A stretch of DNA of 64,000 nt, taken from NCBI GenBank assembly GCA_019565575.1, contig CP067379.1, forward strand, positions 496,001 to 560,000, given 5' to 3'. This document shows, in pieces, positions 41,801 through 46,479 of the stretch. The first letter of the stretch is position 1. Each line of letters opens with the position of its first letter. The stretch is from Flavobacterium covae. Lineage in GTDB: Bacteria > Bacteroidota > Bacteroidia > Flavobacteriales > Flavobacteriaceae. The notes under the pieces are model-generated. The model ran no database searches, was not told the DNA's origin, and saw only the letters and a program-made list of their open reading frames with translations. The translations under genes and the position numbers were made by a program.

Positions 41801-44800
41801 ATGTAACCCCTGTTACAACAGGTCCTATCCGTATTGATGCAGATGGTAATGTAACGATCCAGCCAGGTACAGCAAGTGGTACATACACAATTCCTTATAC
41901 AATTTGTGAAACAGGAGCAACCCCAGTAAACTGTAAAACAGCCAATATAACTGTAGAAGTTAAAAACGAATTAATAGCTAAGGATGATAATTTAGGAACC
42001 GTAGCCACTTCTGCCACAGCAACTACAGTAGCAGGAAGCGTTTTAGCCAATAATGGAAACGGAGCCGATACGTTAAATGGCGTTGCAGTAACCCCAGCCA
42101 ACACAGATGTAACCCCTGTTACAACAGGTCCTATCCGTATTGATGCAGATGGTAATGTAACGATCCAGCCAGGTACAGCAAGTGGTACATACACAATTCC
42201 TTATACAATTTGTGAAACAGGAGCAACCCCAGTAAACTGTAAAACAGCCAATATAACTGTAGAAGTTAAAAACGAATTAATAGCTAAGAATGATAATTTA
42301 GGAACCGTAGCCACTTCTGCCACAGCAACTACAGTAGCAGGAAGCGTTTTAGCCAATAATGGAAACGGAGCCGATACATTAAATGGCGTTGCAGTAACCC
42401 CAGCCAACACAGATGTAACCCCTGTTACAACAGGTCCTATCCGTATTGATGCAGATGGTAATGTAACGATCCAGCCAGGTACAGCAAGTGGTACATACAC
42501 AATTCCTTATACAATTTGTGAAACAGGAGCAACCCCAGTAAACTGTAAAACAGCCAATATAACTGTAGAAGTTAAAAACGAATTAATAGCTAAGAATGAT
42601 AATTTAGGAACCGTAGCCACTTCTGCCACAGCAACTACAGTAGCAGGAAGCGTTTTAGCCAATAATGGAAACGGAGCCGATACATTAAATGGCGTTGCAG
42701 TAACCCCAGCCAACACAGATGTAACCCCTGTTACAACAGGTCCTATCCGTATTGATGCAGATGGTAATATAACGATCCAGCCAGGTACAGCAAGTGGTAC
42801 ATACACAATTCCTTATACAATTTGTGAAACAGGAGCAACCCCAGTAAACTGTAAAACAGCCAATATAACTGTAGAAGTTAAAAATACTATTGACGCTATA
42901 GACGATGCCAAAGTAACCGTTACCTCAGGAAGTAATACACCCAATATAACGCTAAACGATAAGTTAAACGGATCAAACGTTACCATAGGTACAGCAGCAG
43001 GTCAAGTAAGCCTAACAGGAGTAAACGTTCCAGCAGGCTTAACATTAAATGCCGATGGTACCATTACAATAGGCGCTACCACACCAAGTGGCACATACCA
43101 AGTAGAGTATCAAATCTGTGAAAACGGAGCTAACCCAGTAAACTGCGATAAAGCAAATGCTATAGTAGAAGTTAAAAATACTATTGACGCTATAGACGAT
43201 GCCAAAGTAACCGTTACCTCAGGAAGTAATACACCCAATATAACGCTAAACGATAAGTTAAACGGATCAAACGTTACCATAGGTACAGCAGCAGGTCAAG
43301 TAAGCCTAACAGGAGTAAACGTTCCAGCAGGCTTAACATTAAATGCCGATGGTACCATTACAATAGGCGCTACCACACCAAGTGGCACATACCAAGTAGA
43401 GTATCAAATCTGTGAAAACGGAGCAACTCCAGTAAACTGCGATAAAGCAAATGCTATAGTAGAAGTTAAAAATACTATTGACGCTATAGACGATGCCAAA
43501 GTAACCGTTACCTCAGGAAGTAATACACCCAATATAACGCTAAACGATAAGTTAAACGGATCAAACGTTACCATAGGTACAGCAGCAGGTCAAGTAAGCC
43601 TAACAGGAGTAAACGTTCCAGCAGGCTTAACATTAAATGCCGATGGTACCATTACAATAGGCGCTACCACACCAAGTGGCACATACCAAGTAGAGTATCA
43701 AATCTGTGAAAACGGAGCAACTCCAGTAAACTGTGATAAAGCAAATGCTATAGTAGAAGTTAAAAATACTATTGATGCTATAGACGATGCCAAAGTAACC
43801 GTTACCTCAGGAAGTAATACACCCAATATAACGCTAAACGATAAGTTAAACGGATCAAACGTTACCATAGGTACAGCAGCAGGTCAAGTAAGCCTAACAG
43901 GAGTAAACGTTCCAGCAGGCTTAACATTAAATGCCGATGGTACCATTACAATAGGCGCTACCACACCAAGTGGCACATACCAAGTAGAGTATCAAATCTG
44001 TGAAAACGGAGCTAACCCAGTAAACTGCGATAAAGCAAATGCTATAGTAGAAGTTAAAAATACTATTGACGCTATAGACGATGCCAAAGTAACCGTTACT
44101 TCCAGGAAGTAATACACCCAATATAACGCTAAACGATAAGTTAAACGGATCAAACGTTACCATAGGTACAGCAGCAGGTCAAGTAAGCCTAACAGGAGTA
44201 AACGTTCCAGCAGGCTTAACATTAAATGCCGATGGTACCATTACAATAGGCGCTACCACACCAAGTGGCACATACCAAGTAGAGTATCAAATCTGTGAAA
44301 ACGGAGCTAACCCAGCAAACTGCGATAAAGCAATTGCTATAGTAGAAGTTAAAAATACTATTGACGCTATAGACGATGCCAAAGTAACGGTTACTTCCAG
44401 GAGGTAATACACCCAATATAACGCTAAACGATAAGTTAAACGGATCAAACGTTACCATAGGTACAGCAGCAGGTCAAGTAAGCCTAACAGGAGTAAACGT
44501 TCCAGCAGGCTTAACATTAAATGCCGATGGTACCATTACAATAGGCGCTACCACACCAAGTGGCACATACCAAGTAGAGTATCAAATCTGTGAAAACGGA
44601 GCAACTCCAGTAAACTGCGATAAAGCAATTGCTATAGTAGAAGTTAAAAATACTATTGACGCTATAGACGATGCCAAAGTAACGGTTACTTCCAGGAGGT
44701 AATACACCCAATATAACGCTAAACGATAAGTTAAACGGATCAAACGTTACCATAGGTACAGCAGCAGGTCAAGTAAGCCTAACAGGAGTAAACGTTCCAG

Positions 44801-46479
44801 CAGGCTTAACATTAAATGCCGATGGTACCATTACAATAGGCGCTACCACACCAAGTGGCACATACCAAGTAGATTATCAAATCTGTGAAAACGGAGCTAA
44901 CCCAGCAAACTGTGACATCGCAATTGCTATAGTAGAAGTTAAAAATATTATTGACGCTATAGACGATGCCAAAGTAACCGTTACCTCAGGAAGTAATACA
45001 CCCAATATAACGCTAAACGATAAGTTAAACGGATCAAACGTTGACATAGGTCCAATATTAGGTCAAGTAAGCCTAACAGGAGTAAACGTTCCAGCAGGCT
45101 TAACATTAAATACCGATGGTACCATTACAATAGGCGCTACCACACCAAGTGGCACATACCAAGTAGAGTATGAAATCTGTGAAAACGGAGCTAATCCAAT
45201 AAACTGTGATAAAGCAATTGCTATAGTAGAAGTTAAAAATACTATTGACGCTATAGACGATGCCAAAGTAACCGTTACCTCAGGAAGTAATACACCCAAT
45301 GTAACGTTAAACGATAAGTTAAACGGATCAAACGTTACCATAGGTACAGCAGCAGGTCAAGTAAGCCTAACAGGAGTAAACGTTCCAGCAGGCTTAACAT
45401 TAAATGCCGATGGTACCATTACAATAGGCGCTACCACACCAAGTGGTATATACCAAGTAGAGTATCAAATATGTGAGAACGGAGCTAACCCAGCAAACTG
45501 TGACATCGCAAATGCTATAGTAGAAGTTAAAAACCCGATAGTATTGGGAGGACCAGATAAAGAATTAATAGTGTCAGGAACTACAGGAACAATTTCAATT
45601 TATAATAATGACACATTTAATGGAAAACCATTATCATCTACCATAGGAACAGGAGTAGGTCAAGTAACAGTCACAATAACAGGATTACCACAAGGAATAA
45701 CACTTAATTCTAATGGAACAATTACAGTAGATAATACGGTTGACAATAATACATATACCTTTACTTATACCGTTTGTGAAAATGGTGCTTTAATTCCAAA
45801 TTGTGTTACACAAACAGTTGTTATAGATGTTTCAGCTAAAGTTGACGCAAATAATGATGAATTTGTAACAACTAATGGAGGATCAGGTTTAGTAGCAGGA
45901 AATGTTTTAGTTAATGACAGCATAAACAACTTAAGTCAAGGTTCTGCAACAATTAATAATGTAGTGCTAAGTCAAATTACTTTAGCACAGCCAGTAATTA
46001 CCGTGCCATCAAAATCTCCAGTGCCATATTTAGATGCTGCTACAGGAAGAGTAATTGTACCAGCAGGTACACCAGCTGGAACCTATACTTTTGATTATAA
46101 AGCATGTTTACTAATTAAACCAGGTATTTGTGATACCGCTACAGTAACTGTAAGAGTAGAACCATCAAACAAAGAGGAATTTGTTATTTACAACCACATG
46201 ACTCCTAATGGAGATGGGAATAACGATGTATTCTTTATAGACGGAATAGATAAATTTCCTAATAACTCAGTAGAAGTTTACAACCGATGGGGAGTATTAG
46301 TATATGAGGCAAAAGGATATAATAATAATGATCGATCATTCCGAGGCATATCATCAGGACGAGTTACGATCAAACAATTAGAAGAATTGCCAGAAGGAAC
46401 ATACTATTATATGTTTAAGTACGAAGATACTAAAGGTATGCCCCAAGAAAAAGCAGGTTATTTATATATCAATAGATAA
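38851..46479 (+). CDS. Giant repeat adhesin 2 with T9SS type B C-terminal domain, three +1 frameshifts
   Basis: About 2,540 residues. Signal peptide (helix ending KSYSQ); an N-terminal ~280-residue region that reads like a beta-propeller (SGVGLAGLNSFATD, DHLNNLWLVGDRVRQYD); an SdrD B-like domain (IGGRVYRDNNNNGIFDG); a DUF11 domain (LGITKTVSNTTPNVGS to TEVDPSLGDN); a degenerate repeat; 7 x 102-residue A repeats; 9 x 98-residue B repeats; two closing modules; and the sorting domain identical to adhesin 1. B repeats 5, 6 and 7 each carry one extra base, so the frame is lost at 44103 (stop 44110-44112) and returns to the original frame after 44693. The N-terminus is unrelated to adhesin 1. Confidence 0.86.
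40741..42882 (+). repeat. Tandem array of 7 x 306-nt A units in adhesin 2
   Basis: Seven 102-codon units from N(D/E)LIAK(N/D)DNLGTVATS to ANITVEVK, preceded by one degenerate unit (about 40438-40740). Units differ at few positions (D/E, N/D, TTANT/TPANT). Each has the pair of Cys in TICETGATPVNC. Confidence 0.96.
42883..45531 (+). repeat. Tandem array of 9 B units (294 or 295 nt) in adhesin 2
   Basis: Unit starts (Asn of NTIDAIDDAK): 42883, 43177, 43471, 43765, 44059, 44354, 44649, 44944, 45238. Units 5-7 are 295 nt, each with ACTTCCAGG where the others have ACCTCAGG. Units 8 and 9 are more divergent (NIID, VDIGPILG). Cys pair in QICENGA(N/T)PVNC. Confidence 0.96.

What the first reader, a model, noticed from the sequence alone, without database searches (positions are those of the whole stretch)
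44059..44943. Three consecutive 295-nt repeats each add +1, and together restore the frame
B repeats 5, 6 and 7 of adhesin 2 are 295 nt, not 294, each with ACTTCCAGG in place of ACCTCAGG. The first ends translation at 44110-44112, but after three units the original frame is regained and stays open to the sorting domain at 46479. Three shifted units in a row are explained either by tandem amplification of one mutated unit or by a site-specific read error on a variant shared by these three units.
Basis: partly seen in the sequence, partly recalled or inferred. Interest (0 to 1): 0.7.

Follow-up and report, generated by a model that had tools for sequence, protein, structure and literature searches.

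The report
Repeated sequencing error in adhesin gene
The three one-base-longer repeats in this bacterial adhesin gene are almost certainly a recurring base-calling error of the genome assembly at one short DNA word, not a mutation or a frameshift that the cell uses, so the finding is an artefact rather than new biology.

Summary
Units 5-7 of the nine-unit array (starting at 44047, 44342, 44637) are 295 nt and carry ACTTCCAGG. The open frame ends at 44112, and the same frame is open again over 44683-46479, up to the sorting domain. Units 5-7 are exactly the units with a silent C-to-T variant; without the extra C that variant makes the hexamer CTTCAG, while the other six units have CCTCAG. A near-identical second locus shows the same. 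The extra C is not an adhesin feature. Of 9,894 heptamers scored in 421 kb of this assembly, CTTCCAG coincides most often with a +1 frame break: 29 of 75 sites, against 1.5% overall and 0 of 25 in two control genomes. At a site in an unrelated gene, both relatives compared lack the extra base. The assembly also splits rpoC, acnB and sprA. This is a systematic, word-specific consensus error. CTGAAG/CTTCAG is the Eco57I site, and the genome has a 997-codon Eco57I-family enzyme, so methylation-induced nanopore miscalling is the likely cause; that step is inferred.

The parts
38851..44112 (+). First open piece of adhesin 2 (1753 aa); ends at the stop 44110-44112 in unit 5 of the 294-nt array
   Evidence: DUF11 and SdrD_B domains
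42871..45519 (+). Array of nine units, lengths 294 x4, 295 x3, 294 x2
   Evidence: tandem repeat row
44047..44341 (+). Unit 5, 295 nt, ACTTCCAGG at 44098
44342..44636 (+). Unit 6, 295 nt, ACTTCCAGG at 44393
44637..44931 (+). Unit 7, 295 nt, ACTTCCAGG at 44688
44683..46479 (+). Second open piece of adhesin 2, same frame as the first; CHU_C sorting domain at its end
46534..47448 (+). PorP/SprF family gene, open
47459..49288 (+). Gene with PD40 repeats and an OmpA domain

Best explanation
The three extra bases are one recurring consensus error. In this assembly the hexamer CTTCAG (CTGAAG on the other strand) is often written with an extra C. Units 5-7 share a silent C-to-T variant that makes this hexamer; the other six units have CCTCAG and escape. 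The same short context therefore gives the same error three times here and three times in the second locus, and three one-base extensions close the frame by arithmetic. The cell most likely carries nine 294-nt units in one open frame. Shown: the association with the variant, the genome-wide recurrence of the word at frame breaks, and the absence of the extra base in relatives at the sites that could be aligned. Inferred: that the reads were nanopore reads, and that N6-adenine methylation of CTGAAG by the genome's own Eco57I-family enzyme causes the miscall (about 0.65 given that it is an error).
For: Variant association 3 of 3 against 0 of 6 units, repeated in the second locus. Unbiased ranking: CTTCCAG and its complement first of 9,894 heptamers, 29 of 75 sites (39%), overall 1.5%; in two control genomes of the same genus 0 of 25, and the best heptamer of 9,014 reaches 10%. 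CTTCCAG:CTTCAG is 77:126 here, 28:162 in the control genomes and 10:99 in F. columnare plus F. davisii loci. Of 12 TTACTTCCAGG sites outside the repeats 5 are clear +1 breaks; of 11 TTACTTCAGG sites none is. Orthologues of the L046 gene in F. columnare and F. davisii lack the extra base. 5 of 15 frame-changing insertions relative to F. columnare ORFs are at CTTC(C)AG. rpoC, acnB and sprA are split in the assembly. Eco57I-family enzyme of 997 codons; Eco57I is 997 aa and recognises CTGAAG (PMC3874165, passages).
Against: No reads were available, so the error is not seen directly. Most CTTCAG words are written without the extra base (126 CTTCAG against 77 CTTCCAG), so the error is partial, yet all six repeat units have it; a shared context and mixed reads would explain this but were not shown. 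Aligned to F. columnare, only 3 of 27 CTTCAG sites are one base longer here, and to F. davisii 1 of 28. Some CTTCCAG words are genuine: 12 of 75 lie in frames open through the site. The relative-to-relative comparison is not clean, since F. davisii 90-106 also has many frame-changing indels (25 of 39 F. columnare ORFs). The modification errors described for Listeria in PMC10687267 were mainly mismatches, not insertions (passages). The enzyme's specificity is not shown.
Confidence: 0.95

Rival explanations
1. A real +1 mutation arose in one unit, spread to three neighbouring units by tandem duplication or gene conversion, and was copied to the second locus. The adhesin would be truncated in this strain.
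For: The three units are neighbours and share the variant and the change at unit position 287; both loci show it. The loci are near-identical over 6.3 kb, so exchange between them is plausible.
Against: Units 5-7 differ from one another at 6 to 9 other positions. The inserted base coincides with the worst error word of the whole assembly, which also breaks other genes.
Confidence: 0.03
2. Programmed +1 frameshifting: ribosomes change frame at ACTTCC-AGG in each unit and make the full-length adhesin.
For: The frame after the site is open and codes for the same repeat protein. AGG can be a slow codon and TCC-stop sites shift in other systems (recalled, from no call).
Against: Of 29 CTTCCAG break sites in the sample, 18 have the broken frame on the strand opposite to CTTCCAG and 11 on the same strand, which a ribosomal signal could not explain. 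Relatives lack the extra base at the L046 site. Other breaks without this word are common.
Confidence: 0.005
3. Same error, other cause: a base-caller or polisher weakness at CTTCAG that has nothing to do with methylation.
For: Only a part of the sites is affected. No reads, platform or methylation data were seen.
Against: F. davisii 90-106, whose loci also hold many frame breaks, shows no CTTCCAG excess (4 against 58 CTTCAG). In the Eco57I-family loci fetched from F. davisii and F. columnare the best match to the 997-codon enzyme is 24-26% identical.
Confidence: 0.33

Closest known systems
Methylation-motif consensus errors in nanopore assemblies (Dcm CCAGG/CCTGG in Klebsiella, PMC6591954; lineage-specific motifs in Listeria, PMC10687267; passages of both seen)
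   Same: Systematic errors tied to one short word, present in one genome and not in relatives, with a candidate methyltransferase in the genome.
   Different: Here the error is an inserted C at CTTCAG; in the Listeria passages the errors were mainly mismatches. Platform and methylation are not shown here.
Frameshift artefacts of long-read assemblies (PMC12007338, PMC11017572; starts of abstracts seen in a search listing only)
   Same: Split genes that are probably intact in the organism.
   Different: In this case one word accounts for the breaks in question.
Type IX-secreted repeat adhesins of the SprB kind (recalled; F. johnsoniae SprB papers seen in a search listing only)
   Same: Long tandem repeats, CHU_C sorting domain, PorP/SprF gene directly downstream.
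   Different: Direct orthology to SprB was not tested.

Membership tests
Word-specific (modification-type) consensus error | One short word is concentrated at frame breaks across unrelated genes | tested here: met
   CTTCCAG first of 9,894 heptamers, 29 of 75 sites, overall 1.5%
Word-specific (modification-type) consensus error | Effect absent from comparable genomes | tested here: met
   0 of 25 in two same-genus genomes; CTTCCAG 10 against CTTCAG 99 in F. columnare plus F. davisii loci; 0 of 35 and 0 of 34 CTTCAG sites one base longer between those two relatives
Word-specific (modification-type) consensus error | The genome encodes a methyltransferase for the word | tested here: inconclusive
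   997-codon Eco57I-family frame, second Eco57I-family match about 1.3 kb away; CTGAAG specificity is inferred from the family and from F. psychrophilum
Word-specific (modification-type) consensus error | Raw signal or reads show the miscall at methylated sites | not testable with these tools
   no reads held
Programmed ribosomal frameshifting | Signal in one orientation relative to the frame | tested here: not met
   18 of 29 break sites have the broken frame on the opposite strand, 11 on the same
Programmed ribosomal frameshifting | Shift site kept in relatives | tested here: not met
   extra base absent from both relatives at the L046 site; F. davisii adhesin units carry CTTCAG without it at the matching place
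Phase-variable contingency locus | Homopolymer or simple-sequence tract at the shift site | tested here: not met
   the sites read ACTTCCAGG; the longest run anywhere in the units is 5 bases
Type IX-secreted repeat adhesin (SprB-like) | C-terminal type IX sorting domain | tested here: met
   CHU_C, E = 8.5e-26
Type IX-secreted repeat adhesin (SprB-like) | Adjacent PorP/SprF gene | tested here: met
   46534-47448, E = 5.5e-84
Type IX-secreted repeat adhesin (SprB-like) | Signal peptide and surface exposure | not tested
   the N-terminus looks hydrophobic by eye only

The most novel reading that the evidence does not exclude
The +1 in units 5-7 is real in both loci: a set of three shifted units, moved by gene conversion between two near-identical adhesin loci, so that the reading frame of the far part of the adhesin depends on how many shifted units the array holds and the locus switches by recombination.
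Probability: 0.02. Interest if true: 0.6.

Novelty: not a real feature. Interest (0 to 1): 0.12.

Why it matters
It prevents a false claim of frameshifting or phase variation in a surface adhesin of a fish-associated Flavobacterium. It also gives a simple way to recognise such artefacts: rank short words by how often they sit on frame breaks. If the methylation cause is right, the consensus errors of a public assembly reveal which site the strain methylates. Statements about broken genes drawn from this assembly need the same check.

Tried and rejected
Tandem amplification of a mutated unit was considered and set aside, because the word breaks other genes too. Programmed frameshifting was rejected on orientation and on relatives. 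Slippage in a homopolymer was rejected for this site, since no run is there, although one-base losses, many in A/T runs, are the commonest break elsewhere (31 of 46 frame-changing indels are one-base losses). A general shortage of long A/T runs in the assembly was looked for and not found. A ranking of depleted hexamers against relatives did not show CTTCAG among the 14 most depleted; the frame-break ranking did single out CTTCCAG. The ORF comparison is a weak rate estimate: F. davisii is rich in frame breaks itself and two F. columnare loci (L120, L122) overlap, so some indels count twice. NCBIfam gave no specific name for the 997-codon enzyme. Paper searches did not list a report of CTGAAG-linked nanopore errors or of a nanopore columnaris-group assembly (listings only). 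The species of the window genome was not determined beyond its nearness to F. columnare and F. davisii, and the sequencing platform was not established.

Full report
What is there. The window is positions 496001-560000 of a single-contig 3.40 Mb genome with listed completeness 88.4% and contamination 5.7%. The adhesin (38851-46479) carries seven 306-nt units and then nine units of 294 or 295 nt. It ends in a CHU_C type IX sorting domain and is followed by a PorP/SprF gene and a gene with an OmpA domain. The finding's description is accurate: units 5, 6 and 7 are 295 nt with ACTTCCAGG where the other six have ACCTCAGG; the first open piece ends at 44112, and the same frame is open again over 44683-46479.

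The variant matters. Relative to unit 1, the three long units share a silent C-to-T change next to the extra C, but differ from one another at 6 to 9 other positions. Without the extra C, that T makes the hexamer CTTCAG; the other six units have CCTCAG. None of the 16 units of the two arrays contains CTTCAG or CTGAAG as written, and only units 5-7 contain CTTCCAG. So the long units are exactly those that would hold the hexamer: 3 of 3 against 0 of 6 (Fisher p = 0.012).

A second locus shows the same. Around 1,853,772-1,861,860 the assembly holds a near-identical copy of the later repeats, the sorting domain, the PorP/SprF gene and the OmpA-domain gene. Over 6.3 kb it differs at 18 positions, 15 of them at one array edge. 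Its eight units include three with the T variant, all with the extra C, and five without either. Reads may be mixed between such loci, so this is not independent evidence.

The extra C is not an adhesin feature. TTACTTCCAGG occurs 18 times in the whole assembly, 6 times in these repeats and 12 times elsewhere. Five of the 12 (L089, L093, L094, L100, L104) have at least 50 open codons on each side in frames that differ by +1 at the site; two are weaker (L098, L103) and five show no clear break. Of 11 TTACTTCAGG sites none shows a clear break. L093 and L094 lie near another PorP/SprF gene and may belong to a further adhesin. L089 is the site found earlier in L046, in an unrelated gene. ACTTCCAGG also separates two frames of a gene in L056 that looks like a glycosyltransferase by eye.

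An unbiased test agrees. Every position of 421 kb of this assembly (18 stretches plus the window without 42871-45520; 300 bases at each end of each stretch left out) was scored for a +1 frame break, and the 9,894 heptamers with at least 20 sites were ranked. CTTCCAG and its complement come first, with 29 of 75 sites (39%) against 1.5% overall. The other 46 sites are 12 with a frame open through and 34 undecided. In 320 kb of two other genomes of the same genus the best heptamer reaches 10% and CTTCCAG has 0 of 25. Six related words in the same assembly, tested singly, give 8 breaks in 248 sites; four of them (CTTCCTG, CTTCCAA, CATCCAG, GTTCCAG; 5 of 144) were used for the Fisher test (p = 3e-11). 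CTTCAG itself gives 4 of 123. CTTCCAG:CTTCAG counts are 77:126 here, 28:162 in the control genomes and 10:99 in F. columnare plus F. davisii loci.

Relatives. The closest named genomes found are Flavobacterium davisii 90-106 and F. columnare NBRC 100251. At the L046 site both lack the extra base. Of 39 F. columnare open frames of at least 150 codons in the loci compared, 35 were covered in this assembly and 24 of these had a frame-changing indel: 46 indels, of which 31 are one-base losses, many in A/T runs, and 15 insertions, 5 of them at CTTC(C)AG. This is not a clean rate: 25 of the 39 also have such an indel in F. davisii, 18 of 46 F. davisii frames have one in F. columnare, and overlapping loci count some indels twice. 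At aligned CTTCAG sites this assembly is one base longer in 3 of 27 (from F. columnare) and 1 of 28 (from F. davisii), against 0 of 35 and 0 of 34 between the two relatives. In both F. davisii adhesin loci, 3 of the 6 matching unit starts have CTTCAG at this place without the extra base, so intact versions of the site exist.

Sequence quality. The assembly splits genes that a living gliding bacterium should need: rpoC near 1,840,890 and acnB near 1,870,200, and sprA into at least four pieces within this window (53284-60463). The median open frame of at least 100 codons is 208 codons in the 360-kb sample, against 286 and 321 in the two control genomes. Adhesin 1 and one PorP/SprF copy of the window are split too.

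Why this hexamer. CTGAAG (complement CTTCAG) is the recognition site of Eco57I, a 997-aa enzyme with a companion methylase (PMC3874165, passages). F. psychrophilum CSF259-93 has an Eco57I-type system listed with CTGAAG; the same table notes a frameshift in its second methylase gene that sequencing showed to be a probable assembly artefact (PMC11837570, section 6). This genome has a 997-codon open frame of the Eco57I family (E = 5e-38), with a second Eco57I-family match about 1.3 kb away in a 234-codon frame. It is 52.8% identical over 99% of its length to plasmid proteins annotated N-6 DNA methylase, one of which lies beside another N-6 DNA methylase. In the Eco57I-family loci fetched from F. 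columnare and F. davisii (six loci, not every listed match) the best matches to it are 24-26% identical. Nanopore consensus errors at methylated words are known from Klebsiella Dcm sites (PMC6591954, passages) and from lineage-specific modification in Listeria, where they were mainly mismatches (PMC10687267, passages). Methylation-induced miscalling therefore fits, but neither the platform nor the methylation is shown; I put that cause at about 0.65.

Rivals. A real mutation spread by duplication would have to coincide with the worst error word of the assembly. Programmed frameshifting fails because in 18 of the 29 break sites the broken frame is on the strand opposite to CTTCCAG and in 11 on the same strand, and because relatives lack the extra base where they align. 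The closing of the frame after three units is arithmetic.

Verdict. Confidence in a consensus error is 0.95.

Noticed in passing
window 24189-27484, 46125-49421; G000:C1 about 1858568-1861864 (L018): The end of the adhesin, the PorP/SprF gene and the OmpA-domain gene exist in three near-identical copies (7 or 8 differences over 3.3 kb, indels included), which suggests recent duplication or gene conversion between adhesin loci.
   Followed up: partly
window 15519-24543 and 24598-25511: Adhesin 1 is split into several open pieces, one break lying in a 307-nt unit of a 306-nt array, and its PorP/SprF copy is split where a T run differs in length from the copy at 46534-47448.
   Followed up: partly
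window 53284-60463 (-): sprA, the type IX secretion translocon gene, lies in at least four frame-shifted pieces.
   Followed up: partly
L019 and L020 (F. davisii 90-106, NZ_CP067378.1): The homologous adhesins of F. davisii are also broken into several frames, with unit spacings of 600 and 601 bases, and without a CTTCCAG excess; possibly another systematic error word.
   Followed up: no
G000:C1:2921156-2923409 (L189, L195): An Eco57I-family enzyme of 997 codons with a second Eco57I-family match beside it; only distant relatives were seen in the loci fetched from F. columnare and F. davisii.
   Followed up: partly
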